Source: Closterium sp. NIES-65
Lineage: Eukaryota; Streptophyta; Zygnematophyceae; Desmidiales; Closteriaceae
DNA: 64,000 nucleotides
Assembly (NCBI GenBank): GCA_948144175.1
Contig: CANXME010002546.1
Coordinates: 1-64,000, forward strand
Direction of reading: 5' to 3'
The notes beneath the pieces were generated by a model. That model was not told where the DNA came from. It searched no databases and saw only the letters and a program-made list of their open reading frames with translations. A program made the translations under genes and the position numbers. Within the stretch, counting starts at the first letter, position 1, and the number at the start of each line of letters is the position of its first letter. This document shows positions 39,301-63,807 of this stretch, piece after piece.

Positions 39301-42300
39301 GAAACTACAGAGCTTTAACTGAGTACAGACAGGGCTCAACCTGAGAATCTCAAAGAGCATGTGATGCAGATGTGAGGGGAGATGTAAGCAAAAGAGGCGT
39401 TGAGATCGCCTGTGAGCACGAACTCAGGACAGCAGCCAAAGAGCTAACCAAGGCAAGGGGTACAGAACAGACTCACCTTGAGAATCTCAAACAGCATGTA
39501 ATGCAGGTGTGAAGGGATGTAGGCAAATGAGGTGTTGAGATCCCCTGTGAGCACGAACTCAGGGCAGCAGCCGAACGTCCTCGTGCACATGTCTGTCGCC
39601 TCCTCCACTGCGTCTTCAACGACCTCCCGTGCTGACATCTGAGGATGATGAGGTGACGAGGAGAGATTGCAGTGGGAGGGGAAAGGTAAAGACTCAAGGA
39701 AAGGGCAGCAGCCGAACGTCCTCGTGCACATGTCAGTGGCCTCCTCCACTGCATCGTCCACCACCTCCCGCGCTGACATCTGATAATGGCGAAGGGGAAA
39801 GAAGATGAGAACTGGGAGTGGGAAGGGGAACAGTGAACAGTCAGGGAAAGGGCAGCAGCCGAACGTCCTCGTACACATGTCAGTTGCCTCCTCCACTGCG
39901 TCTTCAACGACCTCCCGTGCTGACATCTGAAGATGGTGATGAGGAGGAGACGGGAGTAGGACGAGGAAGGGTACTGATTCAAGGAAGTGTTTTGAGTCGA
40001 CTCAAAACACAGAAGGGTACTGATTCAAGGAAAAGGCAGCAGCCAAACGCTCGAGTGCACACATCCAGTGCATCTGGAACCCATGCCGACATTTTTGAGG
40101 CGCCTAAAAAATTCAGTGCATCTGAACTGAAACCCATGCCGACAACTGAAGGTGACTTTTGAGTCGACTCAAAAGTCACCTCGAGTACACACATCCAGTG
40201 CATCTGAAACTCGATGCATTGGGTTTCGAAGCTTCGAAGCATCTGAAACCCATGCCGACAACTGAAGGCTTCAAAGCTTAGCGTTCCTTGCCGTCAAGTC
40301 AATTCAAGAGTCACCCCGCAAGCTTACAACCTCAGGGAGAAGGGATATTGCGACTTTCTAAAACCCCTTCACCAATCATGGTCACAGCTGAAGGTAAAGT
40401 TGAGAGACGGGTCACATGAGTGATAGGTACAAACGAAGGGTGAGCCGCAACAAGCACACTCACTCACGTTGGTGCAGATAACCCCGATATACCCTGGTCT
40501 CTTCTGCTGCAATGCCATATGCTGTTCTGCCACCAACACTCACTGAACTTCTGTGCAGAAACAGTGTGGGTCAACACAAGCCCCCCCACTCACTCACGTT
40601 AGTGCAGATGACACCGATATACCCTGGTTTCTTCTGCTGCAGGGCGATGTGCTGCTCTGCCACCACCCTCCCTCGGAGTGCGTTCTGTTTCCTACTCCAA
40701 ATCCACTCAAGAGAGGCACACACACTTCTCACTCACGTTGGTGCAGATGACCCCGATGTACCCTGGCCTCTTCTGCTGAAGGGCGATGTGCTGCTCTGCC
40801 ACCACCCTGCCTCAGATTGAGTTTTTTTTCCTACTCCAAATCCACTCAAGAGAGGCACAAGCACTTCCCACTCACGTTGGTGCAGATAACACCGATGTAC
40901 CCTGGTCTCTTCTGCTGCAGTGCAATATGCTGCTCTGCCACCACCCTTCTGCTGATACGAGACCGCAACCTGCCAGGACAGACACAAAGGAAGACAGTCT
41001 ATAAACACAGCAATCAACATGTACAAGCTACACTGCATCATGCAAGAACAGCAAAGTTCCATCTATATACCATGTAAATGAGCATCCCAGCCCTACGGCG
41101 TGCAGTTGCCTCTGGACGATCGAGAATATGATCATATCATATCATATCAGATCCGATCCGATCAAGGGCACGCACATGTTATCAAGGAAGCTGTCGAGGT
41201 TGAGCTCTCGCCCCACCAGCTGCCGGTTGGCGCACTCCCGCACCCCTCGGGCCAGCACGCCTATGAGGGGCTTGGGGCCTGCCTATGAGTTTCTTGGCGC
41301 TCTGTGCTCTCTCAGTCTACCTGACCTGGCTGCCTGGCTGCCTGGCTCACATGTTATCAAGGAAGCTGTCGAGATTGAGTTCTCGCCCCACCAGTGGCCG
41401 GATGGAGCACTCCCTCACACCACGTGCCAGCACGCCTATAAGGGGTGTGTGCTCTTCCACCAGCTGTGCAGGTGAGCGCAGGGGAGAGGGAGAGAGGGAA
41501 GCATAGAGTGGGACAGGGGGATGAGAGGTAAGGGGCTGGATGGAGCACTCCCTCACCCCGCGGACTAGCTGATGAATTGAGTGATGAGGAAAAGGGGAAA
41601 GGTTGTGAACGGTAGAAGAGAAGGCTCTCTCACCCCGCCCGTGGGCCAACACACTCAAAATCGCCTATCACCCATCATCACCCATTACTCACCAGCGCCA
41701 GCAGCTCGGTGAGCTTATCATTGTCCTCATGCGTCACAGGATACATTGACATGCAAACACCCCCTTCCATCACCCATCAACCATCTTCCACCACCCTCCA
41801 CCACTCTCCACCCATCTCTCACCAGTGCCAGCAGCTCCGTGAACTTCTCATTGTCCTCATGCGTCCGCACCTCAGGAAACGCAACCAGCAGGTCCAGCGC
41901 TCTGCGGTACGAGTCATAGACCTGGAGTGAGGGGGGTACGAGGAGAGGGGAGAGAGGAGAGGAGATAGATGGGGGGAGGAAAAGAGACGAGAAAATAAGT
42001 TCTTGTGTGTCCCCACCCCAGGGAATACAACCAGCAGGTCCAGCGCCCTGCGGTACGAGTCATAGACCTGAGAGGGGGGTATGAGGAGAGAGGAGGAGAA
42101 GAGGAGGCACATGAGGGGAAGAGACGGGAAAATCAGTTCTTGTGCGTCCACACCCCAGGGAATGCAACCAGCAGGTCTAGCGCCCTGAAGTAAGAGTCAT
42201 AGACCTGAGAGGGGAATATGCGGAGAGGGGTGAGAGGAGAGGAGGCAGATGAGGGGAGAAAAACGGACAAGTCAGGACAATGAGGCGGTTGGCCACGCTG

Positions 42301-43502
42301 ACGTGGCATCTACAAAATGATGACGTGGCACCTGCTTGATGTGTGGGTTGGTGACGACGATGTAAGGCAGGAATTGAAGATCCATGAGGCGCTTGGCCAG
42401 CCGGATGGGCAGCTCGCGGTGCACAAACCTGGAGAATGACAGCCGAAAACAAACAGACAAACAAACAAACAAATAAAACACATAAAAAAAAACAAAAAAC
42501 AAAAAACAGCAAAAGGAGCACTTATTGCTTGGCCAGGGACGGATAGGCAAAGGGACGGTCCTTGCATGACAGGGGGGCTAGCAGCTCACGGTGCACAGAC
42601 ATGGAGAAAGAAGGGAAACGGGCGAAATAACACTGATTACTTATCCAGTGGGGGAGGGTGGTTGTGTGGAGGGAGGAGGAGTGTTACCTGGCCTGGCGGA
42701 GGAGATAGGAGGGGTCTTTGAGAACCTGCTCTCCGAACTGCATCATGTGCTGCATCGTCGTCGCTGTCATCGGCAGCGCCGCGTATTTCTCCACCGTCAC
42801 GTCGTAAAACGACGCTTTGTTAAACGCCGACGCTTTGTTCTGCGACCAGCCTCCCGGACCTCGCGGGTACGGCAGGGAGAAACGCCGAATTCCTGAAACA
42901 GCTGCTGCTGCTGGCCTTGGTGCGGCTGCTGCCGGTATTCCCAAGGCTTGAAGTTGTTGGTACTGTCGAGATTGGTGGTGGTAGTGCCGGTACATCTGTT
43001 GCTGATACTGACTGTTTTGATGGTACTTAAGATGCCGACGCGATCCTGAGAACTGCTGTGTTTCGATCAAGCTCTTGATCACGGAATCAGCGGCAGCCGA
43101 GAACGACCGAGTAGGCGGTCTCGCGTCGACGGATCTCGCGTCAAGAACTTCCCGCATCGTCAACCCTACGGGCTCATATGTAGGCTTCTCGAATGGCGGT
43201 GTTTCGACTCGGCGGGTTTCGCCTCTCGACTCGCGGCTCGCTGGTCCAGCTTCGCTAAGTATTTCTGAAACACGTGTGGCCATGCCAACTGCAATTACAT
43301 CAAGTGGCGCATCAGTGGTTGTTCCAGGACCCCTCGCATTTCTTTGGTCATCCCGTGCTGTTGTCGCGGAGATCGGAAAAGCAGGAGATGATACGTGGTT
43401 GAGTGCGTGGGATAGCAGTGGGTAAGCGAGGCATCTCAAAATGTCAATGACCGGCTTCGACGCGAGTGGGAGCGAGCTTCGCGGAAGATTCTGCAACGCC
43501 AT
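36330..43502 (-). CDS. Mitochondrial PDHK/BCKDK-family protein kinase, 11 exons
   Basis: The exons are 43502-42688, 42428-42332, 41921-41823, 41463-41351, 40969-40876, 39638-39477, 38933-38808, 37892-37848, 37295-37229, 36875-36775 and 36413-36330, all with GT/AG ends, joining in frame to 600 residues. The N-terminal 240 residues are basic and then Gln/His/Ala-rich, plausibly a mitochondrial presequence plus linker. The helical regulatory domain has [14 protein letters not shown] and [11 protein letters not shown], then [16 protein letters not shown]. The GHKL ATP-binding domain has N-box [11 protein letters not shown]1 SDLGGGIPE and G2 [10 protein letters not shown], ending [12 protein letters not shown]. 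Family role: serine phosphorylation of the E1 subunit of mitochondrial 2-oxoacid dehydrogenases. Wording is nearer fungal Pkp1 and BCKDK than canonical plant PDK. Confidence 0.95.
37001..37054 (-). repeat. Partial copy of kinase exon 10 (5' part)
   Basis: It repeats the DSQGTPMAG coding stretch of exon 10 (36,775-36,875) and then diverges before the G2 box. It lies upstream of the intact exon in gene orientation. Confidence 0.75.
37620..37690 (-). repeat. Partial, diverged copy of kinase exon 9
   Basis: The minus strand reads CGYSFVEGG where exon 9 reads YGYSSVEGD, with similar flanking bases. It lies upstream of the intact exon 9 (37,229-37,295). Confidence 0.55.
37893..38334. repeat. 12-bp minisatellite in kinase intron 7
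   Basis: About 36 units of GAAGGGATGGGT with GATGGGATGGGT and GGGCGAAGGGAT variants in a patterned order. It begins at the acceptor of exon 8 (37,892). No stop codons arise on either strand, so very long open frames appear; they are not genes. Confidence 0.95.
38391..38550. repeat. GGAT tetranucleotide array (about 40 copies)
   Basis: An uninterrupted run of GGAT/ATGG units, close to the 12-bp minisatellite in the same intron. Its perfection suggests recent expansion. Confidence 0.97.
38690..39050 (-). repeat. Partial copies on both sides of kinase exon 7 (N-box)
   Basis: At 38,692-38,722 the minus strand repeats the exon 3' end (SNLVTIK against SNEVTIK) followed by a GT donor. At 38,991-39,050 it repeats the 5' end with degenerate [10 protein letters not shown] coding. 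The intact exon 7 (38,808-38,933) lies between them. Confidence 0.8.
39115..39437 (-). repeat. Three 3'-part copies of kinase exon 6
   Basis: At about 39,345-39,437, 39,214-39,300 and 39,115-39,180 the minus strand repeats the exon end (the [17 protein letters not shown] and MLFEIL stretch) in increasingly diverged form. All lie downstream of the intact exon 6 (39,477-39,638). Confidence 0.85.
39704..39928 (-). repeat. Two 5'-part copies of kinase exon 6
   Basis: At 39,850-39,928 and 39,704-39,780 the minus strand repeats the acceptor and MSAREVV(E/D)DAVEEATDM through TRTFGCCP, then diverges. The intact copy alone continues into the [10 protein letters not shown] block. Both lie upstream of it. 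Confidence 0.9.
39966..40032. repeat. Palindrome between 21-bp direct repeats
   Basis: A perfect 24-bp palindrome (39,987-40,010, core TTTTGAGTCGACTCAAAA) separates two identical 21-bp copies of GAAGGGTACTGATTCAAGGA(A) at 39,966-39,986 and 40,012-40,032. Confidence 0.92.
40060..40285. repeat. Cluster of three palindromes interleaved with repeated sequence
   Basis: A CAGTGCATCTG...CCATGCCGACA stretch is repeated about three times. Between the copies lie an imperfect palindrome with core TTTGAGGCGCCTA (40,092-40,112), a perfect 30-bp palindrome with core TTTTGAGTCGACTCAAAA (40,151-40,180), and TTCGAAGCTTCGAA (40,225-40,238). Confidence 0.88.
40466..40810 (-). repeat. Three 3'-part copies of kinase exon 5
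   Basis: At 40,733-40,810, 40,596-40,668 and 40,466-40,540 the minus strand repeats [24 protein letters not shown] coding up to ICTN and a GTGAGT donor. The intact exon 5 (40,876-40,969) is upstream and alone retains the RSRISR start and acceptor. Confidence 0.92.
41177..41660 (-). repeat. Partial copies around kinase exon 4
   Basis: A 3'-part copy ([13 protein letters not shown] through NLDSFLDNM) lies at 41,177-41,275, downstream of the intact exon (41,351-41,463). Shorter copies of the GVRECSI-like stretch lie upstream at about 41,530-41,570 and 41,625-41,660. Confidence 0.8.
41696..42210 (-). repeat. Partial copies around kinase exon 3
   Basis: A 3'-part copy ([14 protein letters not shown]) lies at 41,696-41,745. 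Two 5'-part copies ([20 protein letters not shown]) lie at 42,015-42,075 and 42,150-42,215. The intact exon (41,823-41,921) is between them. The 5' copies still carry the CAGGTCTATGACTC acceptor context. Confidence 0.88.
42578..42606 (-). repeat. Short copy of the start of kinase exon 2
   Basis: It repeats the acceptor and the CACCGTGAGCTGC-like beginning of exon 2 (42,332-42,428), upstream of the intact exon. Confidence 0.6.
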
Positions 43503-44269: not shown

Positions 44270-44328
44270 GGGGGGGGGGGGGGGGGGGGGGGGGGGGTGG
44301 GGGGGGTGGGGGGGGGGGGGGGGGTGGG
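44270..44328. repeat. Poly-G tract broken by single T bases
   Basis: Nearly 60 bases of G with a few T interruptions. It can form G-quadruplexes on the plus strand. The open frames through it give poly-Gly or poly-Pro and are not genes. Confidence 0.95.
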
Positions 44329-46205: not shown

Positions 46206-46331
46206 TGCCATCCTTTTAGGTGCTCTTTCGTTAGCGGGTCTTTCGACGAATCCTCGGATCCCGTTCTTGCCATCCTTTTAGGTGCTCTTTCGTTAGCGGG
46301 TCTTTCGACGAATCCTCGGATCCCGTTCATC
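46206..46331. repeat. 62-bp tandem duplication upstream of the receptor kinase
   Basis: Two adjacent, essentially identical copies of a unit that begins GCCATCCTTTTAGGTGCTC and ends at a GGATCCCGTTC. It lies 220-350 bp before the proposed start codon and may be part of the promoter or 5' UTR. Confidence 0.9.
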
Positions 46332-46552: not shown

Positions 46553-49500
46553 ATGGCATCAGCGCATGTGATGCTGATGGCCCTATGGGTCGTGACGTGG
46601 TTAACCGCACTCGCCTTCGTCCCTGCAACACTCGCTGCAAGCCCTGACAGTGAGTCCGATTTTCCATGTATCCGTATGTAGGGACGTGACAGCTGTTTGT
46701 TTAAGCGCCAAAAAAAACCCTTCCCTGCTGTACTCGCTATAAGCAACGACAGCAATTCCTGCTTTCCAAAGTTCATGTACTGTCCATAAATAGGAACATG
46801 ACAGCATCGCGTGGCACCATGGCACCGTATCATGATGAAACAGCAGTCAGTGTACCCTTAACACATTTCCTTTCTACCACCCCCCACCTCCTCTACCATC
46901 CCCCACCTCCTCTACCATCCCCCACCTCCTCCCCTCACCGCCGCCTCTTCCACCCCTCCCCTTTCCCGCTTTCCCACCACCCCTCTCCCCCCCTCCCCCC
47001 CTCCCCCCCCCCCCCCCCCCCCACCTCCTCCTCCCCCTCTCATGCAGCGGAGGAGCTGTTGAACATCAAGGCTGCGTTCATGGCGTCAAACCCCGCGGCG
47101 CCGCACACAACATAGACCAGTCATCCGTCCAGTTTCCCAACCCCTACACCCTCCCTCCTCATCCATTCCCCCACCAATGGTTCCTCTTCCACCTCCCACC
47201 TCCCACCCCCACCCCCACCCACCCCTCACTCTCATGCAGCGGAGGAGCTGTTGAACCTCAAGGCGGCATTAATGGCGTCAAACTCCGTGGCGCTGCAGTC
47301 CTTCCCAGACGACATCGACCCATGTAGAGCCCTAACCCCCTACTCCTTGCGTTTCCCCCCCTCCTCCCATCACTTGTGCAGCGGAGGAGCTGTTGAACCT
47401 CAAAGCGGCGTTCATGGCGTCAAACCCCGCGGCGTTGCAGTCCTTCCCAGACGACATCGACCCGTGCAGCGCGGAGTGGCAGGAGAGGATCAAGTGCAAC
47501 GAGCATGGCCGGATCATAGAGCTGTGAGCACTGACCATGTTGGGTTGAGGGGGAAGAGGGGGTGGAGGGAGGGGAAGAGGGATGGTGTGGTGTGAGTGAC
47601 TGCAGTCCTTCCCAGACGACATCGACCTGTGCAGCGCAGAGTGGCAGGAGAGGAAAAAGCGCAACAAGTTGACTTTTGAGTCGACTCAAGAGTGGCAGGA
47701 GAGGAAAAAGCGCAACAAGCATGGCCGAGTCATTGAGTTGCGAACACGTTGGGTTGAAAAGAGAGGGGGGGGGGCGTGGGGAGAAAGGAGCGACTCACTG
47801 CAGTCCTTCCCAGATGACATCGACCGTGCAGTGCAGAGTGGCAGGAGAGAATCAAGTGCAACGAGCATGGCCGGATTATCAAACTGTAGGCACATTGGAT
47901 TGTTGAAAGGGGGGCTGTGGTGTGGGGCTCTGCTATCTCCCTTCCCCCTCCTGCTATCACTTTTTTTGCCCGTGCTATCATCTGGCGAACGAGCTCCTGA
48001 AAGAGCCAATCCCAGGATGACAGCTGGCCCGGCTGGATGCTCATCCTTCCGTCCAATCAACGTGTTCCCTACTGATGGCCCTTGGAACTCGTGAGGCTTC
48101 TCAGAACTCGTTCCCAGATGCTGCCATCCCTGGTGTAGTGCCCCTTATTCGTGCTTCACCTGCTCCTTGTCTCCAATTCACCCCCCATTCTGCTTCCCCT
48201 TTCCCACGTGCAGCAATCTCGCCAACGAGCTGCTCAAAGGGCCAATCCCAGGCCGACAGCTGGCGCAGCTGGATGCATTAGAGCGCCTGTGAGTAGCGCA
48301 CGCTTTTGTCTTAAGGAGAGTCGGGTTCGAGGCTTTGGGTTCTGCAGCAGCAGGCAGGGTGAGAGAACAGAGTTTGGGTTCTGCTGCAGCAGTAGGGTCT
48401 GAGGCTGGAGCTCCAAGACTTGAAGAGCTTCAAGCCAGGGGTTCGAGTCTTGGCCCGATAGGGTTTCGTTAAGTCATCACTGCCTGGTGGTGGAAGATGT
48501 GGAATTAGGGTTGTCTACTGCTTTGGGTTCGTGGGGCGGCCAGCAGGGAGATTAGGGTTTGGGGCTGGGGGAGCTTCAAGACTGAAGAGCTTCAGGCTAG
48601 GGGCTCGATTCTTGGCACGCTGAGCTTCACATCTAGCCAGTGCCTGCCTGGTGGCACCTTAGGCCTTAGGGTAGTAATAATTTGGTTTTTCGACATTTCA
48701 AAACCGATACATTATCATGTGGTTCAGCCCAGAGGTTCGGATTTTGGCAAAATTAGTTTCCTTTAGCCAGTGCCTGGTGGCACGCGTTAGGTTTTAGGCC
48801 GGAGAAACTTTTCACTTTTACGGGGGTTGATGCGCTGGGTTACGACTTGACTTTGATGCATTGCTTTATGGAGGCTGCGAGTTAGGGTTTGAGGCGGAGG
48901 TTCTGGGTTTTGAGGGGACAGGCAGGTGGTGTTCAAATGCAGGTCAGTATCCATTGGGGTTGCTTGCGCCTTGTGTTTCTTCTCTTCTGAACATGCTTGG
49001 AAACGAGAAGGGCGTGTAAATTGCAGGAAAATGAGTTCTTTGGATTGGCAATATCAAGCTAGTAGTGAGTGCAGAGAGAGGGAGGTAGCGAAGTAGCCAG
49101 AGAGGTTGGAGAGGCCTGCGTACCAGAGTGACTACTATGAGTATCAACCCTTACTGCCTTATTCTCCTTTGCTCCTTAAAACACTAGACCCTGTCCCTCC
49201 TGCCTTTCTCCTGTTTTCACTGCAGAAATTTGGGGTACAACTCTCTGACTGGCCCCATTCCCAAGGACCTTGGCTCTCTCAACGGCCTCACTTTCCTGTT
49301 AGTCCCATCCCATCCCATCCCATCCCATCCACTCCACTCATAAAATTGCCTTATGGCCCCTCTCGTAAGGGCCCTTTTTCTCAGCTCCCATTCTTACAGC
49401 GCCTTGCATCTCTTTTTAAGGCGCTTCTTCTATGGCTACATTCTCATCTTCCTGGTAGGTGCAGAATGCTTATTTGTTGCACACACACTATCTGCTGAAA

Positions 49501-52500: not shown

Positions 52501-55500
52501 AGTCGCTCATGTACCTGTGCGTACTGTGCTGCTCTCTCTCTAACGGTCCTTATTGAATATAATAAACGGTACAGCAAGTGTAAGGCATGAATGGACTGTT
52601 GAGACTAACCTATTGCTGCTCTCTCCCTCTTGCTGCTCTGCACTTCAACGGATGGACACCCCCTTGTGAATTCAGCCATGCACTTACCTGCGAGTGCTTC
52701 CCTGCTTGTACAGCTCTCCGCCTATGCCCTCCCTAGTTTTACACGTTCTTTGAGGCGGCCTCACGTTTTCTCACATTTCCCCCAGCCTACATTCAGCATG
52801 ATTTTTTAGTCGACTCAAAAACTGACTTCTCACATTTCCTCCAGTCTGCATACAGCATGCTCGAATCACTCATGTACCCGTGTGCGCTGCCATGCACTTA
52901 AATCTCCGTCTACCTTTCCCATTTATCTCCCTCTCCCTCTCCCTCTCCCTCTCCCTCTCCTTCTCTCGTCCTCCTCTCCCCTCTTCTTGCCTGCAGGGAC
53001 GTGAGCTACAACAAGGGTTTGAATTCCCACCTTATACCCAACCCTGCCCTCCTTCCCCTCTCAACTGATCCTTCTCCGTCTCCCTCTCTTGTCCTCCTCT
53101 CCCCTCTTCTTGCCTGCAGGGACGTGAGCTACAACGAGGGTATAAACGGCACTATCCCAGAGTTTCTAGGGAAAATGGCACGCATCCAGTCCATGTGAGT
53201 GAGTCAATGCAGCCAACGCTAGTCAACGCATTCAACATGTGTGAGTCAATGCAGTCAACGTGAGTCAATGCAGTCAACGTGAGTCAATGCAGTCAACGTG
53301 AGTCAATGCATGCAGTCAACATGAGTCAATGCAGTGAATGTGAGTCTCTTTCCTCCCTCCCTCCCTCCCTCCCTCCCTTCCTCCCACACACACTCACAGA
53401 GCCTTTGAGTACTGCGATCTGACAGGCCCCATTCCCCCCAACCTGGGCGAGCTGCAGAACATAGTCGAGATAATTCTCGACAACAACCACCTCACGGGGG
53501 ACATCCCTCTGTCCTTCCTTTCCCCTCCGTCCCTCCCTCTCTCCCTTGCTCCCTTGCTCCCCTTTATCCCTACCCTTCAACCACAAAGCCTTTGAGTATT
53601 GTGACTTAACCGGCCCCATCCCAGCCAACCTGGGCGAGCTGCAGAACATAGTGGAGATCTTCCTCGACAACAACCAGCTCACGGGGGACATCCCCCCCTG
53701 ATTCCCTCTCTTCCATCCCTTCCCATCCCATCCCATTCCTTCCTTTTCCTCCCCTTCTCCCTCACTACCCGCAGAGCCTTTGAGTATTGTGACTTAACCG
53801 GCCCCATCCCAGCCAACCTGGGCGAGCTGCAGAACATAGTCGAGATCTTCCTCGACAACAACCAGCTCACGGGGGACATCCCGCCCTCCCTGGGTCAGCT
53901 CGTGACGCTCAACAAGCTCTTCCTCAACCACAACATGCTCTCGGGGGCCATTCCCGTGGAGCTCTGTCAACTCACCAACATCTACGACCTGAATCTGGCC
54001 CGGAACCAGCTTCAGGGGGGCATTCCCGCGTGCTTGGCACAACTGCCGCACCTAGCAACACTGTGAGTCGATCCATCACTCTCATCTCACCATACATCCC
54101 CACGGAGCGCTGCCTGCCAGTTCAGGGGCTACCTCCCGCCCTCGCTGGGGCAGCTCGTGACTCTCAAGCTCGTGACGCTCAACAAGCTCTTCCTCAAACC
54201 ACAACATGCTCTCGGGGCAAATTCCTACAGAGCTCTGTCAACTCACCAACATTTATGATCTGTATTTGGCGAGGAACCAGCTGCAGGGGACCGTTCCTGC
54301 GTGTCTGACACAGCTGCTGCACCTAGCCACCCTGTGAGTAGCGTATGAGCGTGTGAAGGTCCTGTCCTGAGGGCACGGACTGAAAGCAGAGACACAGTAT
54401 TCCTCGACTACAAGAGCAGCTCGAGACCCTCAAGCTCGTGACGCTCAACAAGCTCTTCCTCAACCGCAACATGCTCTCGGGGCAAATTCCTACGGAGCTC
54501 TGCCAGCTGACTAATATTTATGACCTCAACCTGGCCAGGAACCAGCTGCAGGGGACCATTCCCGCTTGCCTGACACAGCTGCCGCGCTTAGCCACGCTGT
54601 GAGTTCCTGCAACACAGCACTCTCTCCCCCTGAACACACCACTCTCTCCCCCTGAACACACCACTCTCTCCCCCTGAACACACCACTCTCTCCCCCTGAA
54701 CACACCACTCTCTCCCCCTGAACACACCACTCTCTCCCCCTGAACACACCACTCTCTCCCCCTGAACACACCACTCTCTCCCCCTGAACACACCACTCTC
54801 TCCCCCTGAACACACCACTCTCTCTATGAACCTGCTGACCATCTCACTCCCAGACGTCTCCAGCACCAACGCTGTGAACTTCGAGTACAACGGCAACTGC
54901 CTTGACAACGTGCCTTCTTTCCCTCCCTGCCTCGCTCTCCCCTCCCTCTCCCACCATTGCAGAACCTTGTCTATGAACCTGCTTACAGGCCCAGTCCCGG
55001 ATGTCACCAGCACCAACGCTGTCAAGTTTGAGTACAACGGCAACTGCCTTGACAACGTGCCGGACCAACAGGACGTCTGCGCCGCTCCCACCACCACTCC
55101 TCCCTCCACAGACGGAACCCCCCCTTCAACGGACGGGACCCCCACTGACGGAACCCCCACTGATGGGACCACCGCCAATCCCCCCACAGCTGACGGCACC
55201 ACCACTGACGGCAGCAGCAGCGGTGGCGGCGATGCTGCTTCCCAGGAGTATCCTCCTCCCGCTGAGGCTGCTGCTGCTTCAGTCTCTGCTCCTCCCCCTC
55301 CTCCCCCTGCCAACCAAGGTGCGTTCAGCTTTTTCATCTCAGGGGTAGCAGCAGCAGCGGTGGCAGCAATGCTGCTTCCCAGTAGTCGCCTCCCCCAGCC
55401 AGGGTATGTTTTTTGAGTATTCTAAAAAAATATGCAATGCTGCTTCCCAGTAGTCGTCTCCCCCAGCCGGGGTATGTTTTTTGAGCATTCTCAAAAAACA

Positions 55501-58500
55501 TGCAATGCTGCTTCCCAGTAGTCGCCTCCCCCAGCCGTGCCTGCTGCCTCGGTTACTCCCCCTACTGCTCCCCCTCCTCCCCTGCTAGCCAAAGTGTGCT
55601 GCGCCGCTCTTCTTTCGGTTTGCTTTCACTCAGCATCTTCAAAGCTCACCACAGGAATTTTTTTTTAGTCGACTCAAAAAGCATCTTCTAGCATTTTTAG
55701 GCTCACCCTCTCCTTCTCCCCACTCACCTCTCCCTCCTATGTTGCCTCCTTCCCCTATGTTCCCAGGCTCCACCACGGCAGCAGCGTGTGTTCTGTGCTG
55801 TGGGGCTTCTTTATAGTCTTCAAAGCTCTCTGCATCTCCCCTCTCGCCCTCTTCCCCCTCCCTCCCATCCTGCCCCTTCCCCTCCCTTCCCCCTCCCCCA
55901 CTCCTCTCCCCCAACCCCTCTTTCCTCCTCCACGTATTCGGTTCCAGGCTCCCCAGCAGCAGCGTATGTGCTGCTGGGCTTTTTTGTCATCTTCTTCAGC
56001 GTCCTCGTTATAGTGGCCTTCATTTGCAACGTGAGGAGCTCTGGAACCTCCTCCTCCAATCGCCCAGACCAATGTACGTCCCCTCTCTCCCTCCCTCCCC
56101 TCCGCCCTCCCCCCCTTCTCTCCCTCCCTCTCCCTCCTCTTTTCCTTCCTCTTCTCTCTCCTCTCTGCCTTCCTCTCCTCCTCCTCTCCCTCCTCTTCGC
56201 TCTCTATTCCCCCTCTCTCCCTCATTACATCAGGGTCAACGCCAGTGCCCGGCATAATCACCATTGTAGTCTTCACGACTGCTCTCGTTGCCCTCATCGC
56301 CGTCGCCTACTACTTGAGCTACCGCCAAGGGAACTCTGACGGCTCTAACCGCGCTGACCAGTGTATGTGCAATGTTGAAGAAGTGTTTTGAGACGTCTCA
56401 AAACACTCTGACGGCTCTAACCGCGCTGACCAGTGTATGTGCAATGAGTTTGAAGAAGTGTTTTGAGACGTCTCAAAACACTCTGACGGCTCTAACCGCG
56501 CTGACCAGTGTATGTGCAATGAGTTTGAAGAAGTGTTTTGAGACGTCTCAAAACACTCTGACGGCTCTAACCGCGCTGACCAGTGTATGTGCAATGAGTT
56601 TGAAGAAGTGTTTTGAGACGTCTCAAAACACTCTGACGGCTCTAACCGCGCCGACCAGTGTATGTGCAATGAGTTTGAAGAAGTGTTTTGAGACGTCTCA
56701 AAACACTCTGACGGCTCTAACCGCGCTGACCAGTGTATGTGCAATGAGTTTGAAGAAGTGTTTTGAGACGTCTCAAAACACTCTGACGGCTCTAACCGCG
56801 CTGACCAGTGTATGTGCAATGAGTTTGAAGAAGTGTTTTGAGACGTCTCAAAACACTCTGACGGCTCTAACCGCGCTGACCAGTGTATGTGCAATGAGTT
56901 TGAAGAAGTGTTTTGAGACGTCTCAAAACACTCTGACGGCTCTAACCGCGCTGACCAGTGTATGTGCAATGAGTTTGAAGAAGTGTTTTGAGACGTCTCA
57001 AAACACTCTGACGGCTCTAACCGCGCTGACCAGTGTATGTGCAATGAGTTTGAAGAAGTGTTTTGAGACGTCTCAAAACACTCTGACGGCTCTAACCGCG
57101 CTGACCAGTGTATGTGCAATGAGTTTGAAGAAGTGTTTTGAGACGTCTCAAAACACTCTGACGGCTCTAACCGCGCCGACCAGTGTATGTGCAATGAGTT
57201 TGAAGAAGTGTTTTGAGACGTCTCAAAACACTCTGACGGCTCTAACCGCGCCGACCAGTGTATGTGCAATGAGTTTGAAGAAGTGTTTTGAGACGTCTCA
57301 AAACACTCTGACGGCTCTAACCGCGCCGACCAGTGTATGTGCAATGAATTTGAAGAAGTGTTTTGAGACGTCTCAAAACACTCTGACGGCTCTAACCGCG
57401 CCGACCAGTGTATGTGCAATGAGTTTGAAGAAGTGTTTTGAGACGTCTCAAAACACTCTGACGGCTCTAACCGCGCCGACCAGTGTATGTGCAATGAATT
57501 TGAAGAAGTGTTTTGAGACGTCTCAAAACACTCTGACGGCTCTAACCGCGCTGACCAGTGTATGTGCAATGAGTTTGAAGAAGTGTTTTGAGACGTCTCA
57601 AAACACTCTGACGGCTCTAACCGCGCTGACCAGTGTATGTGCAATGAGTTTGAAGAAGTGTTTTGAGACGTCTCAAAACACTCTGACGGCTCTAACCGCG
57701 CCGACCAGTGTATGTGCAATGAATTTGAAGAAGTGTTTTGAGACGTCTCAAAACACTCTGACGGCTCTAACCGCGCTGACCAGTGTATGTGCAATGAGTT
57801 TGAAGAAGTGTTTTGAGACGTCTCAAAACACTCTGACGGCTCTAACCGCGCTGACCAGTGTATGTGCAATGAGTTTGAAGAAGTGTTTTGAGACGTCTCA
57901 AAACACTCTGACGGCTCTAACCGCGCTGACCAGTGTATGTGCAATGAGTTTGAAGAAGTGTTTTGAGACGTCTCAAAACACTCTGACGGCTCTAACCGCG
58001 CTGACCAGTGTATGTGCAATGAGTTTGAAGAAGTGTTTTGAGACGTCTCAAAACACTCTGACGGCTCTAACCGCGCCGACCAGTGTATGTGCAATGAGTT
58101 TGAAGAAGTGTTTTGAGACGTCTCAAAACACTCTGACGGCTCTAACCGCGCCGACCAGTGTATGTGCAATGAATTTGAAGAAGTGTTTTGAGGCGTCTCA
58201 AAACACTCTGACGGCTCTAACCGCGCTGACCAGTGTATGTGCAATGAGTTTGAAGAAGTGTTTTGAGACGTCTCAAAACACTCTGACGGCTCTAACCGCG
58301 CCGACCAGTGTATGTGCAATGAGTTTGAAGAAGTGTTTTGAGACGTCTCAAAACACTCTGACGGCTCTAACCGCGCTGACCAGTGTATGTGCAATGAGTT
58401 TGAAGAAGTGTTTTGAGACGTCTCAAAACACTCTGACGGCTCTAACCGCGCTGACCAGTGTATGTGCAATGAGTTTGAAGAAGTGTTTTGAGACGTCTCA

Positions 58501-61500
58501 AAACACTCTGACGGCTCTAACCGCGCTGACCAGTGTATGTGCAATGAGTTTGAAGAAGTGTTTTGAGACGTCTCAAAACACTCTGACGGCTCTAACCGCG
58601 CTGACCAGTGTATGTGCAATGAGTTTGAAGAAGTGTTTTGAGACGTCTCAAAACACTCTGACGGCTCTAACCGCGCTGACCAGTGTATGTGCAATGAGTT
58701 TGAAGAAGTGTTTTGAGACGTCTCAAAACACTCTGACGGCTCTAACCGCGCCGACCAGTGTATGTGCAATGAGTTTGAAGAAGTGTTTTGAGACGTCTCA
58801 AAACACTCTGACGGCTCTAACCGCGCCGACCAGTGTATGTGCAATGAGTTTGAAGAAGTGTTTTGAGACGTCTCAAAACACTCTGACGGCTCTAACCGCG
58901 CCGACCAGTGTATGTGCAATGAATTTGAAGAAGTGTTTTGAGACGTCTCAAAACACTCTGACGGCTCTAACCGCGCCGACCAGTGTATGTGCAATGAGTT
59001 TGAAGAAGTGTTTTGAGACGTCTCAAAACACTCTGACGGCTCTAACCGCGCCGACCAGTGTATGTGCAATGAATTTGAAGAAGTGTTTTGAGACGTCTCA
59101 AAACACTCTGACGGCTCTAACCGCGCTGACCAGTGTATGTGCAATGAGTTTGAAGAAGTGTTTTGAGACGTCTCAAAACACTCTGACGGCTCTAACCGCG
59201 CTGACCAGTGTATGTGCAATGAGTTTGAAGAAGTGTTTTGAGACGTCTCAAAACACTCTGACGGCTCTAACCGCGCCGACCAGTGTATGTGCAATGAATT
59301 TGAAGAAGTGTTTTGAGACGTCTCAAAACACTCTGACGGCTCTAACCGCGCTGACCAGTGTATGTGCAATGAGTTTGAAGAAGTGTTTTGAGACGTCTCA
59401 AAACACTCTGACGGCTCTAACCGCGCTGACCAGTGTATGTGCAATGAGTTTGAAGAAGTGTTTTGAGACGTCTCAAAACACTCTGACGGCTCTAACCGCG
59501 CTGACCAGTGTATGTGCAATGAGTTTGAAGAAGTGTTTTGAGACGTCTCAAAACACTCTGACGGCTCTAACCGCGCTGACCAGTGTATGTGCAATGAGTT
59601 TGAAGAAGTGTTTTGAGACGTCTCAAAACACTCTGACGGCTCTAACCGCGCCGACCAGTGTATGTGCAATGAGTTTGAAGAAGTGTTTTGAGACGTCTCA
59701 AAACACTCTGACGGCTCTAACCGCGCTGACCAGTGTATGTGCAATGAGTTTGAAGAAGTGTTTTGAGACGTCTCAAAACACTCTGACGGCTCTAACCGCG
59801 CCGACCAGTGTATGTGCAATGAGTTTGAAGAAGTGTTTTGAGACGTCTCAAAACACTCTGACGGCTCTAACCGCGCCGACCAGTGTATGTGCAATGAATT
59901 TGAAGAAGTGTTTTGAGGCGTCTCAAAACACTCTGACGGCTCTAACCGCGCTGACCAGTGTATGTGCAATGAGTTTGAAGAAGTGTTTTGAGACGTCTCA
60001 AAACACTCTGACGGCTCTAACCGCGCTGACCAGTGTATGTGCAATGAGTTTGAAGAAGTGTTTTGAGACGTCTCAAAACACTCTGACGGCTCTAACCGCG
60101 CCGACCAGTGTATGTGCAATGAGTTTGAAGAAGTGTTTTGAGACGTCTCAAAACACTCTGACGGCTCTAACCGCGCTGACCAGTGTATGTGCAATGAGTT
60201 TGAAGAAGTGTTTTGAGACGTCTCAAAACACTCTGACGGCTCTAACCGCGCCGACCAGTGTATGTGCAATGAGTTTGAAGAAGTGTTTTGAGACGTCTCA
60301 AAACACTCTGACGGCTCTAACCGCGCTGACCAGTGTATGTGCAATGAGTTTGAAGAAGTGTTTTGAGACGTCTCAAAACACTCTGACGGCTCCAACCGCG
60401 CCGACCAGTGTATGTGCAATGAGTTTGAAGAAGTGTTTTGAGACGTCTCAAAACACTCTGACGGCTCTAACCGCGCTGACCAGTGTATGTGCAATGAGTT
60501 TGAAGAAGTGTTTTGAGACGTCTCAAAACACTCTGACGGCTCTAACCGCGCCGACCAGTGTATGTGCAATGAGTTTGAAGAAGTGTTTTGAGACGTCTCA
60601 AAACACTCTGACGGCTCTAACCGCGCCGACCAGTGTATGTGCAATGAGTTTGAAGAAGTGTTTTGAGACGTCTCAAAACACTCTGACGGCTCTAACCGCG
60701 CTGACCAGTGTATGTGCAATGAGTTTGAAGAAGTGTTTTGAGGCGTCTCAAAACACTCTGACGGCTCTAACCGCGCCGACCAGTGTATGTGCAATGAGTT
60801 TGAAGAAGTGTTTTGAGACGTCTCAAAACACTCTGACGGCTCTAACCGCGCTGACCAGTGTATGTGCAATGAGTTTGAAGAAGTGTTTTGAGACGTCTCA
60901 AAACACTCTGACGGCTCCAACCGCGCCGACCAGTGTATGTGCAATGAGTTTGAAGAAGTGTTTTGAGACGTCTCAAAACACTCTGACGGCTCTAACCGCG
61001 CTGACCAGTGTATGTGCAATGAGTTTGAAGAAGTGTTTTGAGACGTCTCAAAACACTCTGACGGCTCTAACCGCGCCGACCAGTGTATGTGCAATGAGTT
61101 TGAAGAAGTGTTTTGAGACGTCTCAAAACACTCTGACGGCTCTAACCGCGCTGACCAGTGTATGTGCAATGAGTTTGAAGAAGTGTTTTGAGACGTCTCA
61201 AAACACTCTGACGGCTCCAACCGCGCCGACCAGTGTATGTGCAATGAGTTTGAAGAAGTGTTTTGAGACGTCTCAAAACACTCTGACGGCTCTAACCGCG
61301 CCGACCAGTGTATGTGCAATGAGTTTGAAGAAGTGTTTTGAGACGTCTCAAAACACTCTGACGGCTCTAACCGCGCTGACCAGTGTATGTGCAATGAGTT
61401 TGAAGAAGTGTTTTGAGACGTCTCAAAACACTCTGACGGCTCTAACCGCGCTGACCAGTGTATGTGCAATGAGTTTGAAGAAGTGTTTTGAGACGTCTCA

Positions 61501-63807
61501 AAACACTCTGACGGCTCTAACCGCGCCGACCAGTGTATGTGCAATGAGTTTGAAGAAGTGTTTTGAGACGTCTCAAAACACTCTGACGGCTCTAACCGCG
61601 CCGACCAGTGTATGTGCAATGAGTTTGAAGAAGTGTTTTGAGACGTCTCAAAACACTCTGACGGCTCTAACCGCGCTGACCAGTGTATGTGCCATGAGCC
61701 TTGCCTCCTCTGCTCGAGTCATTGAGGTCTGACCTGAGAGGTCACATGGTCTCCCCTTTTCACCGCACCAGTGCCAGTAACAGAGTACAGCCTGTCAAAG
61801 ATCAACAAGGCAACGCGCAACTTCACCACCATCTCTTGATATTCAGCTCTGAAGCTGTTGCTGCTGTTTCTCCTTCCGTTTTCTCCTATTCTCTCCCACT
61901 CTCTTCACCGCACCAGTGCCAGTAACAGAATACAGCCTGTCAAAGATCAACAAGGCAACGCGCAACTTCACCACCATCTCTTGATATTCAGCTCTGAAGC
62001 TGTTCCTGCTGTTTCTCCTTCCGTTTTCTCCTATTCTCTCCCACTCTCTTCACCGCACCAGTGCCAGTAACAGAGTACAGCCTGTCAAAGATCGACAAGG
62101 CAACGCGCAACTTCACCACCATCTCTTGATATTCAGCTCTGAAGCTGTTCCTGCTGTTTCTCCTTCCGTTTTCTCCTATTCTCTCCCACTCTCTTCACCG
62201 CACCAGTGCCAGTAACAGAGAACAGCCTGTCAAAGATCGACAAGGCAACGCGCAACTTCACCACCATCTCTTGATATTCAGCTCTGAAGCTGTTCCTGCT
62301 GTTTCTCCTTCCGTTTTCTCCTATTCTCTCCCACTCTCTTCACCGCACCAGTGCCAGTAACAGAGTACAGCCTGTCAAAGATCAACAAGGCAACGCACAA
62401 CTTCACCACCATCTACGGCCGCGGCAGCCGTCTGTTTCAGCGCAGCCGTCTCTTGCAATCCAGCTCACATGCCAGTTATCTCCACCCTTCCTCCCTTCTC
62501 CACCCCGCCAGTGCCCGTAACGGAGTACAGCCAATCCAAGATCAACAAGGCAACACAAAGCCTCACCACCATCCACGGTCGCGGCAGCTTTGGCAAGGTG
62601 TACCTTGCATTGCAGCTCACATGCCAGTGGTGTCCCCTTTCCTGTCGTTGCCCCAACCATGCAGTGCCAGTAACGGAGTACAGCCTGTCAAAGATCAAGA
62701 AGGCAACACGAAACTTCACCACAATCTATGGGCGGGGAAGCTTTGGCATGGTATACCTGGCAGAGGACTTTTTCCGAGACCAGTCTGACCCGCGAGCCAT
62801 CATCAAGCGAGCCCATGACCCGCAGAGTGAGTGCTATGTTTGGTGCATGCATGCGTGCATTTCTGTTCAAGTGCAAGGTGGAGGTGCTGGCGAGGGCACA
62901 GCACCGCTACCACATGAACATGTAGGGGTACTTTCGAAGCTACCGCACTGAACCAATCTAGCTTCCTTTCCACCTGTCACTTCTCCCCTCATCCTCTCCC
63001 CCTCGGAGCTGGGCGATTTCCTGTTCAAGTGCAAGGTGGAGGTGCTGGCAAGGGCACGGCACCGCTACCTCGTGAACCTGCTGGTGCGGAATCGCACTGA
63101 ACCCATCTCCTTCCTACCGCTTAACCTCCTGACCCATGCCCTTCCCTCATCACAGAGCTGGGTGAATTTCTGTTCAAGTGCAAGGTGGAGGTGCTGGCAA
63201 GGGCACGGCACCGCTACCTGGTGAACCTGCTGGGGTACTGTGTGGGCAAGGGCGAGCGCATCCTCGTTTATGAGTACCTCTCTAATGGCACACTCTTCGA
63301 CCGCCTACACAGTGAGTACATTCTTGTTCCTGGTGTTTTTTCTTTTTTTCTTTCTTTCTTTCTTTTATGGATGGAGCCCTCACACAAACTCTACATATCC
63401 AGCAACCTCCCCACTCCCAACCACCAGGGCCGGAGCTGGAATCACTTTGAGGCGCCTCAAAAACCCCGTCCCAACCCCACCCTGCACCCCCCAACCACCA
63501 GGGCCGGAGCTGGAATCGCTTCCTTGAAAAACGCGTGTGAGCATTGTAGTGAACGTGGCGTGTGCCTTGGAGTATCTCCACTGCACTGCACCACCCTCAA
63601 CCCCTCTCTCTCCCCGTCCCAACCCCACCCTGCACCCCCCAACCGATAGGGCCGGAGCTGGAACCGCTTCCCTGGGAAACGCGTGTGAGCATAGCAGTGA
63701 ACATCGCGTGTGCCTTGGAGTATCTGCATCACGGCGTGTCTCCCCCCCTCGTGCACCGCGCTGTGACCTCCTCCAACATCCTGCTCGCCCACGATATGAG
63801 CGCCAAG
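46553..63807 (+). CDS. LRR receptor-like kinase, 5' part (runs off the right edge)
   Basis: The intact exons I assign are 46553-46649, 47382-47523, 48214-48288, 49226-49297, 49673-49747, 50024-50095, 50517-50588, 50766-50837, 51249-51320, 51660-51732, 52308-52379, 53120-53194, 53775-54062, 54963-55318, 55948-56073 and/or 56234-56362, 62665-62826, 63156-63311 and 63650-63807, about 738 codons. The parts in order are a signal peptide (MASAHVMLMALWVV), an LRRNT-like cap with TEELLNLKAAF and DIDPCSAEW, and about 14 plant LRRs (LSGPIPEWLGNL type, 72/75-nt phase-2 exons). A Thr/Pro-rich juxtamembrane stretch and a membrane segment follow. The kinase has GRGSFGMVY, AIIKRA and a catalytic loop HRAVTSSNILL. 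The HRD Asp is Ala and the loop Lys is Thr, so it looks like an atypical or pseudokinase. The exon at 51,660 is 1 nt too long. Confidence 0.9.
47048..47340 (+). repeat. Two truncated 5'-part copies of receptor exon 2
   Basis: At 47,048-47,113 and 47,241-47,330 the acceptor and TEELLN(I/L)KAA(F/L)MASN coding are repeated. The first ends in a stop soon after ASNPAA and the second diverges after DDIDPC. The complete exon follows at 47,382. Confidence 0.9.
47600..47890 (+). repeat. 3'-part copies of receptor exon 2 with a palindrome at one junction
   Basis: QSFPDDID...EWQER-type coding recurs at 47,600-47,668 and 47,800-47,888. At 47,639-47,668 and 47,690-47,719 an identical 30-bp segment is repeated, separated by a palindromic insert with core TTGAGTCGACTCAA (47,676-47,689). 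Confidence 0.92.
47975..48030 (+). repeat. Diverged copy of receptor exon 3
   Basis: It repeats GCGAACGAGCTCCTGAAAG and the following LRR coding, but with a TGA and no splice sites. The intact exon is at 48,214-48,288. Confidence 0.75.
49884..49960 (+). repeat. 5'-part copy of the receptor exon RFANNQFNG
   Basis: The acceptor and RFANNQFNGPLPKSL coding are repeated at 49,884, then it diverges into CT-rich intron. The complete exon is 50,024-50,095. Confidence 0.9.
50275..50440 (+). repeat. Two 5'-part copies of the receptor exon DMGSNKLSG
   Basis: Copies at 50,275 and 50,385 have acceptors and the (D/E)MGS/G-(N/D)K...ELPPQLA coding but no donor. The complete exon is 50,517-50,588. Confidence 0.9.
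50890..51245 (+). repeat. 5'-part exon copy plus a 16/20-bp minisatellite
   Basis: A copy of EMYTNGLSG coding at about 50,892-50,925 precedes an array of CCCTCCCTCGTGCTCCTGTG units, alternating early on with a 16-bp form (50,985-51,235). The complete exon follows at 51,249. Confidence 0.9.
51525..51600 (+). repeat. In-frame but donorless copy of the receptor exon AMDDNQLSG
   Basis: The acceptor TTAG and AMDDNQLSGLLPPELGDLPN coding are in frame, but the sequence diverges before the exon end and has no GT donor. The other copy (51,660-51,732) has both splice sites but a C8 run instead of the expected C7. Confidence 0.85.
52011..52200 (+). repeat. Two 5'-part copies of the receptor exon YVANNKLEG
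   Basis: Copies at about 52,011 and 52,132 carry the GGCAG acceptor and YVA(N/K)N(N/K)LEGPI coding, then lose similarity. The complete exon is 52,308-52,379. Confidence 0.9.
52462..52890 (+). repeat. 3'-part copies of the receptor exon YVANNKLEG, one with a palindrome
   Basis: The SKLESLMYL end and GTGCGT donor recur at 52,468-52,520, and a weaker copy lies at 52,845-52,890. Two 32-bp repeats (52,769-52,800 and 52,828-52,859) are separated by a palindrome with core TTAGTCGACTCAA (52,802-52,821). Confidence 0.88.
52990..53040 (+). repeat. 5'-part copy of the receptor exon DVSYNEG
   Basis: CTGCAG and DVSYNKGLN coding at about 52,998, diverging afterwards. The complete exon is 53,120-53,194. 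Confidence 0.88.
53205..53345. repeat. 19-bp minisatellite after the receptor exon
   Basis: About six to seven units of GTGAGTCAATGCAGTCAAC. Each unit begins with the 5' splice consensus GTGAGT, so the donor of the preceding exon has been copied as part of the repeat. Confidence 0.88.
53400..53705 (+). repeat. Two 5'-part copies of the large LRR exon
   Basis: Copies at 53,400 and 53,586 encode AFEYCDLTGPIP and NLGELQNIVEI up to LTGDIP, and then stop. The complete 288-nt exon is 53,775-54,062. Confidence 0.92.
54121..54600 (+). repeat. Two 3'-part copies of the large LRR exon
   Basis: At 54,121-54,332 and 54,420-54,600 the stretch LVTLNKLFL...LARNQLQGTIPACL is repeated up to a GTGAGT donor, with small indels. 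Both lie downstream of the complete exon. Confidence 0.92.
54618..54930 (+). repeat. 22-bp minisatellite and a diverged exon copy
   Basis: About 9.5 units of CACTCTCTCCCCCTGAACAC(AC) occupy 54,618-54,826. Next comes a diverged copy of the start of exon 54,963 (SMNLLTI...NAVNFEYNGNCLDNV) without a proper acceptor. Confidence 0.92.
55365..55540. repeat. Three copies of a 32-bp stretch separated by hairpins
   Basis: ATGCTGCTTCCCAGTAGTCG and its continuation occur three times. Between them lie TTTTTTGAG-(TATT or CATT)-CTC/CTA-AAAAAA inverted repeats (about 55,407-55,431 and 55,475-55,500). Confidence 0.9.
55631..55710. repeat. Palindrome between diverged direct repeats
   Basis: CAGCATCTTC...GCTCACC (55,631-55,650) recurs as AGCATCTTCT...GGCTCACC after a palindrome with core TTAGTCGACTCAA (about 55,658-55,680). 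Confidence 0.8.
55948..56073 (+). other. Membrane-segment exon a of the receptor kinase
   Basis: This 126-nt phase 1-1 exon has acceptor TTCCAG and donor GTACGT. It encodes AAYVLLGFFVIFFSVLVIVA, then a basic/Ser-rich end and NRPDQ. A truncated relative lies at about 55,768-55,825. Confidence 0.85.
56234..56362 (+). other. Membrane-segment exon b of the receptor kinase
   Basis: This 129-nt phase 1-1 exon has acceptor CATCAG and donor GTATGT. It encodes IITIVVFTTALVALIAVAYY and ends NRADQ. It shares phase, length and ending with exon a. Including both exons would put two membrane spans in the protein. Confidence 0.85.
56334..61696. repeat. 75-bp palindrome-bearing array, about 71.5 units
   Basis: Units of exactly 75 bp contain the end of membrane exon b with its 5' splice site (CTGACGGCTCTAACCGCG, GACCAGT/GTATGT), then GAAGAAGT and a perfect 24-bp palindrome with core TTTTGAGACGTCTCAAAA. 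Variation is limited to a few positions: GCTGAC/GCCGAC, GAGTTT/GAATTT, AGACG/AGGCG and TCTAACC/TCCAACC. Because 75 is divisible by three and the unit has no stop in one frame of each strand, both strands show open frames of over 1,760 codons. Neither is in the receptor frame, which hits TGA in the first palindrome. The array therefore lies in an intron. Confidence 0.97.
61761..62455 (+). repeat. 145-bp tandem array of the kinase P-loop exon start
   Basis: Units begin at 61,761, 61,906, 62,051, 62,196 and 62,341. Each has an acceptor-like CACCAG, VTEYSLSKINKATRNFTTI-type coding and a 70-bp intronic spacer. The fifth runs on to a degenerate glycine loop. A sixth copy at about 62,505 has GRGSFGKVY. 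The seventh (62,665-62,826) is the intact exon. Confidence 0.95.
62855..63115 (+). repeat. Two copies of receptor kinase exon 63,156-63,311
   Basis: LFKCKVEVLARA(R/Q)HRY coding recurs at 62,862-62,930 and 63,005-63,090 before the intact exon. The second also has an ELGDF start. Neither continues to the VYEYLSNGTL part. Confidence 0.9.
63410..63600 (+). repeat. Two 5'-part copies of the catalytic-loop exon around a palindrome
   Basis: ACCACCAGGGCCGGAGCTGG recurs at about 63,420 and 63,497. They are separated by a perfect palindrome TTTGAGGCGCCTCAAA (63,446-63,461) and spacer. The second continues to ALEYLH-like coding. The complete exon is 63,650-63,807. Confidence 0.9.

What the first reader, a model, noticed from the sequence alone, without database searches (positions are those of the whole stretch)
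39966..63461. A family of short palindromes with a covarying centre sits at the junctions of local duplications
At least seven separate loci (39,987; 40,092; 40,151; 47,676; 52,802; 55,660; 63,446) plus every unit of the 75-bp array carry TTTTGAG-N-CG-N'-CTCAAAA or a close form. The central pair is T/A (TCGA), A/T (ACGT) or G/C (GCGC), so the sequence changes but the symmetry is kept. At most of these loci the palindrome lies between two copies of the adjacent host sequence: 21 bp at 39,966, 30 bp at 47,639, 32 bp at 52,769 and 27 bp at 63,417. I see none in the retroelement half. A hairpin-templated duplication, or a very small mobile palindrome with long target duplications, would fit. I know of no described element with this form.
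Basis: partly seen in the sequence, partly recalled or inferred. Interest (0 to 1): 0.9.

Follow-up and report, generated by a model that had tools for sequence, protein, structure and literature searches.

The report
Tiny palindromes that duplicate their insertion site
An alga's genome holds about 25,000 copies of a very short mirror-image DNA sequence that appears to spread by inserting itself and copying roughly 15 to 100 letters of its landing site, which matches no transposon type that I know or could find.

Summary
The host is probably Closterium sp. NIES-65 (one retroelement protein 100% identical). TTTTGAGNCGN'CTCAAAA occurs 24,964 times in 874 Mb (about 0.1 expected; reversed control 0), inflated by arrays. 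At most 4.5% have non-complementary N/N'. The 18-mer is the centre of longer palindromes (arms up to ~26 bp) in TCGA, ACGT, GCGC and AATT families.

Copies sit in X-E-X: host DNA X, palindrome E, host DNA X again. This was found in 34 of 54 sampled loci versus 78 of 840 random positions (p=7e-20), and in 28 of 36 and 14 of 37 loci picked genome-wide without looking at flanks. In 72 loci with near-identical repeats X is 15-107 bp. E has ragged ends around the centre. No target consensus was found. At five loci a paralogue with one X and no E shows an insertion of E plus X. Repeating X-E units form arrays (71 in the window).

Fixed TSD, conserved ends, a tail and an endonuclease motif are absent: not a MITE, SINE or Replitron. 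Best model: a hairpin, trimmed from its open end, is captured at a staggered break whose fill-in duplicates X. Insertion is well supported; DNA versus RNA hairpin and the enzyme are unknown.

The parts
39966..39986 (.). X, left copy of the 21-bp target duplication
   Evidence: 21/21 identical to 40012-40032; single copy in the tandem paralogue at 39561-39730
39987..40011 (.). E, TCGA-family palindrome with GTG/CAC arms
40012..40032 (.). X, right copy
40093..40110 (.). E core, GCGC family, one mismatch; flanking repeat gapped
40150..40181 (.). E, TCGA family, perfect 32-bp palindrome AGGTGAC-core-GTCACCT; flanking repeat gapped
47639..47668 (.). X, left copy of target duplication (28-30 bp)
   Evidence: the paralogue at about 47812 has it once, by eye
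47669..47689 (.). E, TCGA family, right arm cut short
47690..47719 (.). X, right copy
52768..52800 (.). X, left copy of diverged 33-bp duplication
52801..52826 (.). E, TCGA family, one mismatch
52827..52859 (.). X, right copy
55662..55679 (.). E core, TCGA family, one mismatch; flanking repeat weak
56333..61698 (.). array of 71 X-E units of 75 bp (X about 42 bp of host DNA, E about 33 bp of ACGT family)
   Evidence: TRF 71.6 copies, 98%; 71 cores; X 42/42
63416..63443 (.). X, left copy, 28 bp
63444..63489 (.). E core (GCGC family) plus 27 bp after it that resemble sequence upstream of X in the next tandem copy (by eye)
63490..63517 (.). X, right copy
37163..37217 (.). probable degraded member: 16-bp direct repeats around TGGCCATGAGGCGCCTCACAAAC
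   Evidence: 4 mismatches to the core
55366..55537 (.). 68-bp array (2.5 copies) with a related palindrome, centre CATT or TATT instead of NCGN'

Best explanation
A high-copy family of ultra-short, non-coding mobile palindromes, taken to be in the nuclear genome. Supported by data: a copy (E; longest arms seen give about 54-58 bp, many copies shorter) is inserted into host DNA, and about 15-107 bp of target (X) end up on both sides; X-E units can then multiply into tandem arrays. Inferred: the inserted form is a hairpin with an intact tip and an open base trimmed by nucleases. It is captured in a staggered break (two opposite nicks tens of bases apart); the overhangs are filled in, which duplicates X; the hairpin is opened and copied, which restores a perfect palindrome and passes any arm mutation to both arms. 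I favour a DNA hairpin (for example a cruciform arm cut at its base from an existing copy). No enzyme is identified.
For: 24,964 cores, 0 in reversed control. X-E-X in 34/54 vs 78/840 random positions, 28/36, 14/37 with mutated centres. Empty paralogues with one X and no E at L012:8165 (16-bp X), window 39990 (21 bp), L007:4972 (20 bp), L006:5300 (60 bp) and, by eye, window 47674. Nested: at L040 an ACGT copy lies in a TCGA copy, flanked by GTCACCTCTTACATG / GTCACCTCTTACACG (my reading). Ragged ends: E 18-78 bp, median 33, in 105 loci. Centre kept: sites were found by their centre, so this rests on the half-arm count, where TGACTTTTGAG is paired 36 times and unpaired 6. Arms vary yet match: 79.3% complementary within 22 loci, 67.7% mean and 78.5% maximum in 2000 partner swaps. 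Centre complementary in at least 95.5%. No target consensus: at most 0.11 bit at any boundary position, 142 boundaries of 72 loci. Spacer-less duplications 12, core-bearing ones 33 of 89 two-copy duplications in the sample. Fill-in at staggered breaks is a shown source of small tandem duplications in mouse and human cells (PMC8355091, passages).
Against: No enzyme, no free hairpin and no new insertion was seen. 20 of 54 sampled loci, 8 of 36 and 23 of 37 show no X-E-X by the rule used; age may explain this but was not tested. Random positions give X-E-X-like matches 9% of the time because the genome is rich in tandem repeats. The sample was chosen around cores. Of the 89 two-copy duplications, 44 have a spacer without the core, so other duplication goes on too. 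Only five sites have a convincing empty paralogue; the L014 candidate is weak. The arm-symmetry margin over the best swap is small, and several of the 22 loci are clearly asymmetric. Some E carry extra arm pieces (L013:8019; L025, L026, L036), which simple hairpin capture does not predict.
Confidence: 0.55

Rival explanations
1. Retroposition of a hairpin RNA: a short stem-loop transcript is reverse-transcribed at a nick by a LINE-type enzyme (a minimal SINE). Target-primed synthesis gives direct repeats of variable length, and RNA trimming gives ragged ends.
For: Variable-length duplications; copies fold into stable stem-loops as RNA (z -5.8 to -11.3, 4 of 4 tried); ragged ends.
Against: No endonuclease motif at 142 boundaries (at most 0.11 bit). 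No A-tail or constant 3' end seen: in 17 of 25 TCGA loci the match to the arm consensus runs for at most 4 bases on both sides. N/N' complementarity at the very tip is not needed in an RNA tetraloop (general knowledge).
Confidence: 0.25
2. Duplication first: the genome makes small tandem duplications at staggered breaks anyway, and this palindrome is merely a common filler copied in at the join.
For: Local tandem repeats abound (109 overlapping TRF rows in the window; random positions 78/840). Of 89 two-copy duplications 12 have no spacer and 44 have a spacer without the core. Extra bases at such joins are known in general (recalled).
Against: 33 of the 89 carry the core (sample chosen around cores). 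All 33 gaps with a hairpin arm of 8 or more hold this family (29 by the core search, 4 clipped forms by eye) and no other hairpin.
Confidence: 0.12
3. A MITE-like DNA transposon whose two inverted ends are joined, moved by an unknown transposase with an unusually long stagger.
For: Short, palindromic, high copy, non-coding, target duplications.
Against: Duplication length varies 15-107 bp. Outer ends are ragged while the inside is constant, the reverse of a transposon end. No longer element with these ends seen: shared sequence between sites is mostly 35-50 bp, and the few longer matches look like shared arrays or gene and repeat paralogy (judged from the listing of a 264-kb sample).
Confidence: 0.05
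4. The palindrome was there first and its hairpin provoked duplication of neighbouring DNA.
For: Hairpins are fragile sites (general knowledge); arrays exist.
Against: Empty paralogues lack the palindrome as well as the second X at five loci; duplicating X+E would give X-E-X-E rather than X-E-X.
Confidence: 0.03

Closest known systems
Palindromic GC clusters of yeast mitochondrial DNA (GC42)
   Same: Tiny palindromic non-coding mobile repeats (42 nt) with putative target duplications, families and merging of units (PMC4478555, abstract, opening and section 17)
   Different: Mitochondrial; GC-rich; target site nucleotides AG (2 nt) rather than 15-107 bp; ragged ends around a fixed centre not mentioned in the parts I read
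MITEs
   Same: Short, palindromic, high copy, target duplications
   Different: MITEs (recalled) have conserved outer ends and a fixed duplication length per superfamily; here neither was found
SINEs / LINE-mobilised small RNAs
   Same: Variable-length target duplications, truncated copies
   Different: Too short for the usual Pol III promoter (recalled), no tail, no endonuclease motif, symmetric structure
Small tandem duplications from staggered-break fill-in (CST/Pol alpha-primase; FLT3-ITD)
   Same: Short (under 100 bp) direct duplications made at breaks with long overhangs (PMC8355091, passages)
   Different: There, in the passages seen, no genome-wide family of palindromes lies at the join
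Replitrons (HUH transposons)
   Different: 900 bp to 4 kb, 5-11 bp direct terminal repeats, 2-8 bp target duplications, no inverted ends (PMC10741241, passages)
Bacterial REP/REPIN palindromes
   Same: Short hairpin repeats in many copies (recalled; listing only)
   Different: Bacterial, moved by Y1 transposases, no long duplications (recalled)

Membership tests
MITE (TIR transposon derivative) | conserved outer termini | tested here: not met
   ends ragged around a constant centre
MITE (TIR transposon derivative) | target duplication of fixed length | tested here: not met
   15-107 bp in 72 loci with repeats at least 95% identical
MITE (TIR transposon derivative) | related autonomous element | tested here: inconclusive
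   no element-like homology beyond about 50 bp in 264 kb (from the listing); whole genome not searched for it
SINE / LINE-mobilised RNA | variable-length target duplication | tested here: met
SINE / LINE-mobilised RNA | endonuclease target motif | tested here: not met
   at most 0.11 bit per position, 142 boundaries
SINE / LINE-mobilised RNA | tail or constant 3' end | tested here: not met
   both ends ragged in TCGA loci; no tail in the 36 loci printed (by eye)
Yeast mitochondrial GC cluster | short palindromic mobile unit | tested here: met
   mobility inferred from empty paralogues only
Yeast mitochondrial GC cluster | mitochondrial location and AG target | tested here: not met
   cores on contigs of up to 4.8 Mb, window with retroelements; long X
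Replitron | 2-8 bp target duplication, direct terminal repeats | tested here: not met
   long X, inverted arms
Replitron | HUH endonuclease in the element or genome | not tested
   not searched for
Staggered-break tandem duplication | X duplicated head to tail with no target consensus | tested here: met
Staggered-break tandem duplication | dependence on end joining / Pol alpha fill-in | not testable with these tools
   needs genetics

The most novel reading that the evidence does not exclude
A class of nuclear mobile DNA that is nothing but a hairpin: it has no fixed ends, only a fixed tip. It spreads as excised hairpin DNA captured at staggered breaks, each arm being recopied from the other, so symmetry rather than sequence is inherited, and it seeds tandem arrays and duplicated splice sites in genes.
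Probability: 0.35. Interest if true: 0.92.

Novelty: categorically new. Interest (0 to 1): 0.82.

Why it matters
If the insertion model is right, selfish spread needs neither coding capacity nor defined ends: a hairpin tip is enough. It would give a natural, very abundant record of staggered breaks and their fill-in across a plant-lineage genome, and a source of minisatellites and of duplicated exon ends. Because NIES-64 and NIES-65 are sympatric strains that can mate and have assemblies (PMC10407611, passages), mobility can be tested directly.

Tried and rejected
Chance or base composition: rejected. Non-covarying centre: rejected. Known RNA family: no Rfam match at gathering scores in the window. 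LINE endonuclease motif: none. Other hairpin families in duplication gaps of the sample: none seen. Cross-strain comparison through proteins led nowhere: the 120 listed Closterium proteins, all hits to a Copia query and so a weak test, hold none of seven palindrome-encoded pentapeptides; the array ORF gave 11 weak hits, none named as Closterium, with the tool's length limits. Candidates for insertions in open frames were listed but not pursued. In one search, 16 of 105 loci were flagged as having an empty paralogue; I kept four (L006, L007, L012, window 39990), call L014 weak, and dropped the other 11 from the listing, without aligning each, as arrays, occupied duplicates or homology limited to the palindrome. 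Window 47674 was judged by eye. Planned but did not complete: a genome-wide count for any centre (TTTTGAGNNNNCTCAAAA), a mismatch search for a 44-bp form, and a genome search with joined flanks.

Selection and limits to note: the 54-locus sample comes from 20 stretches chosen around core matches plus the window. The loci were picked by me from the places listed, mostly skipping tandem neighbours: 40 and 37 loci, of which 3 and 1 were dropped as duplicates; L112 and L136, near-identical, both stayed in the 36. Searches allowed wider limits around the core (34 against 28 bases), and the random control was run with the narrower one. E is whatever lies between the repeats, so some long E include non-palindromic bases. 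Three loci (L138-L140) entered only. In one search cores within 150 bp of the previous one were skipped and duplicate X removed.

Full report
What was checked. The 18-mer TTTTGAGNCGNCTCAAAA is present as described: two exact single sites (39990, 40157), five one-mismatch sites (40093, 47674, 52803, 55662, 63445) and 71 units of the 75-bp array; with a CG centre required, none within two mismatches before 39,990. The window lies in an 874-Mb eukaryotic genome (G000, contig 2248). A 675-aa piece of a Copia ORF is 100% identical over its length to a protein named Closterium sp. NIES-65, and all 120 listed hits bear Closterium names, so the host is probably that zygnematophycean alga. Genome-wide the pattern has 24,964 matches and the pattern read backwards has none. 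From 55.6% GC I estimate about 0.1 by chance. Arrays inflate the number: this window alone adds 71 from one array.

The centre. The twelve non-complementary N/N' combinations are covered by two patterns, with 374+417 and 165+168 matches, so at most 1,124 of 24,964 (4.5%) are non-complementary. In the first sample (20 stretches of 10 kb, window not included) 112 sites within two mismatches had centres TCGA 41, GCGC 26, ACGT 22, AATT 9, others 14.

The element is longer than the core. TCGA copies extend to about GCCATGGTAACGAGGTGAC-core-GTCACCTCGTTACCATGGC; the 30-bp form has 613 exact matches. ACGT copies extend to about GCCACGTG(N)AAGNNGTG-core-mirror, and the 24-bp form has 939. These outer forms are read by eye, not from a formal consensus. 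Arms differ between copies (GAAAGAAGGAGTG, TTTGAAGAAGTG, ATTGAAGAAGTG and others) yet tend to mirror each other. In 22 loci whose E length was set by the flanking repeats, arms are 79.3% complementary over 11 positions; swapping partners within a centre family gives 67.7% on average and 78.5% at most in 2000 trials. The margin over the best swap is small, and several copies are clearly asymmetric.

The flanks. With a fixed rule (ungapped repeat of at least 88% identity, score at least 15, close to the core on both sides), X-E-X is found at 34 of 54 independent loci and 78 of 840 random positions (Fisher p 7e-20). Loci picked from genome-wide lists without regard to flanks give 28 of 36 for GTG-core-CAC (slightly wider limits) and 14 of 37 for mutated centres. 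A looser gapped rule gave 50 of 107 against 136 of 1260. Over 105 loci the median X is 41 bp (10-90%: 20-75) and the median E is 33 bp (18-78). In the 72 loci whose repeats are at least 95% identical, X runs from 15 to 107 bp (the rule itself bounds both ends), and the outer boundaries of X carry at most 0.11 bit of information: no target motif.

It is an insertion. At five loci a held paralogue has one X and no E: L012:8165 (16-bp X), window 39990 (21 bp), L007:4972 (20 bp), L006:5300 (60 bp, three paralogues listed, one aligned), and, by eye, window 47674. At L040 an ACGT palindrome sits inside a TCGA one with its own 15-bp repeats (sequence; by eye). In the sample, of 89 two-copy local duplications, 33 carry the core (up to three mismatches), 12 have no spacer (gap -3 to 3) and 44 have a spacer without the core. 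Of 247 repeat pairs with a 12-70 bp gap, the core search found the family in 46, and all 33 gaps with a hairpin arm of at least 8 show it, 4 of these only as clipped forms that I recognised by eye. These samples were chosen around cores, so the ratios do not describe the whole genome.

How it may work. The ends are ragged around a constant centre, the reverse of a transposon. Because sites were found by their centre, the claim that copies keep it rests on the half-arm count: TGACTTTTGAG is unpaired in 6 of 42 cases. That is what trimming of a hairpin from its open end would leave. Duplications of tens of bases without a target motif are what fill-in of a staggered break can leave; mouse cells make them at paired nicks that leave 43-base overhangs, and human cells likewise at nickase-made breaks, through CST and Pol alpha-primase (PMC8355091, passages). 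So I propose capture of a trimmed hairpin at a staggered break. A DNA hairpin is favoured because symmetry reaches the dyad axis, where an RNA loop would not need it; an RNA hairpin remains possible, since the four copies tried also fold well as RNA. No enzyme was found or searched for. Extra arm pieces in some E (L013:8019; L025, L026, L036) point to iterated copying and are unexplained.

What it is not. Fixed duplication length and conserved ends (MITE), tail and endonuclease motif (SINE/LINE), 2-8 bp duplications and direct terminal repeats (Replitron) are not met. Yeast mitochondrial GC clusters are the nearest in form, with a 2-base AG target (PMC4478555, abstract, opening and one section). 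In print: none of the four 18-mers is in the library (one unrelated Taxus paper holds a 13-base piece). Closterium with 'palindrom' gives 13 papers, 10 listed, none about such repeats by title and abstract start. Descriptive phrases gave 140 papers (15 listed), 1 and 2, none fitting by title and abstract start. The paper on these genomes has no 'palindrom' in its main text (PMC10407611). The library holds open-licence papers only, so a description elsewhere cannot be excluded.

Verdict.

Noticed in passing
window 56333-61698: Each array unit seems to include the end of a kinase-gene exon and its 5' splice donor (CCAGTGTATGTG), so the array may hold about 70 tandem splice donors; read by eye, not tested.
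   Followed up: no
window 63416-63517: The target duplication seems to include the 3' splice site (CACCAG/GGCCGG), so the second copy would keep the intron end intact; by eye.
   Followed up: no
window 4691-7820: DIRS-like retroelement: reverse transcriptase, RNase H-like and tyrosine-recombinase domains in neighbouring ORFs.
   Followed up: no
window 10068-31432: Copia-type retroelement ORFs (gag, RVT_2, integrase domains), one matching a Closterium sp. NIES-65 protein at 100%.
   Followed up: no
window 61759-62762: Tandem copies (145-153 bp) of what looks like an exon beginning VPVTEYSLSKINKATRNFTTI (by eye).
   Followed up: no
L009:3330-3420: Short array of TGACTTTTGAGGCAC half-arms without mirror partners.
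   Followed up: no
L055 (C105:675500-675900): Minisatellite whose unit has GAGGTGAC...GTCACCTC arms around a different 22-base middle: a possible relative with a loop.
   Followed up: no
L058 near its end: CACGTGGAGTTATTCTTTTACACGTG: CACGTG ends without the TTTTGAG core, perhaps a further relative.
   Followed up: no
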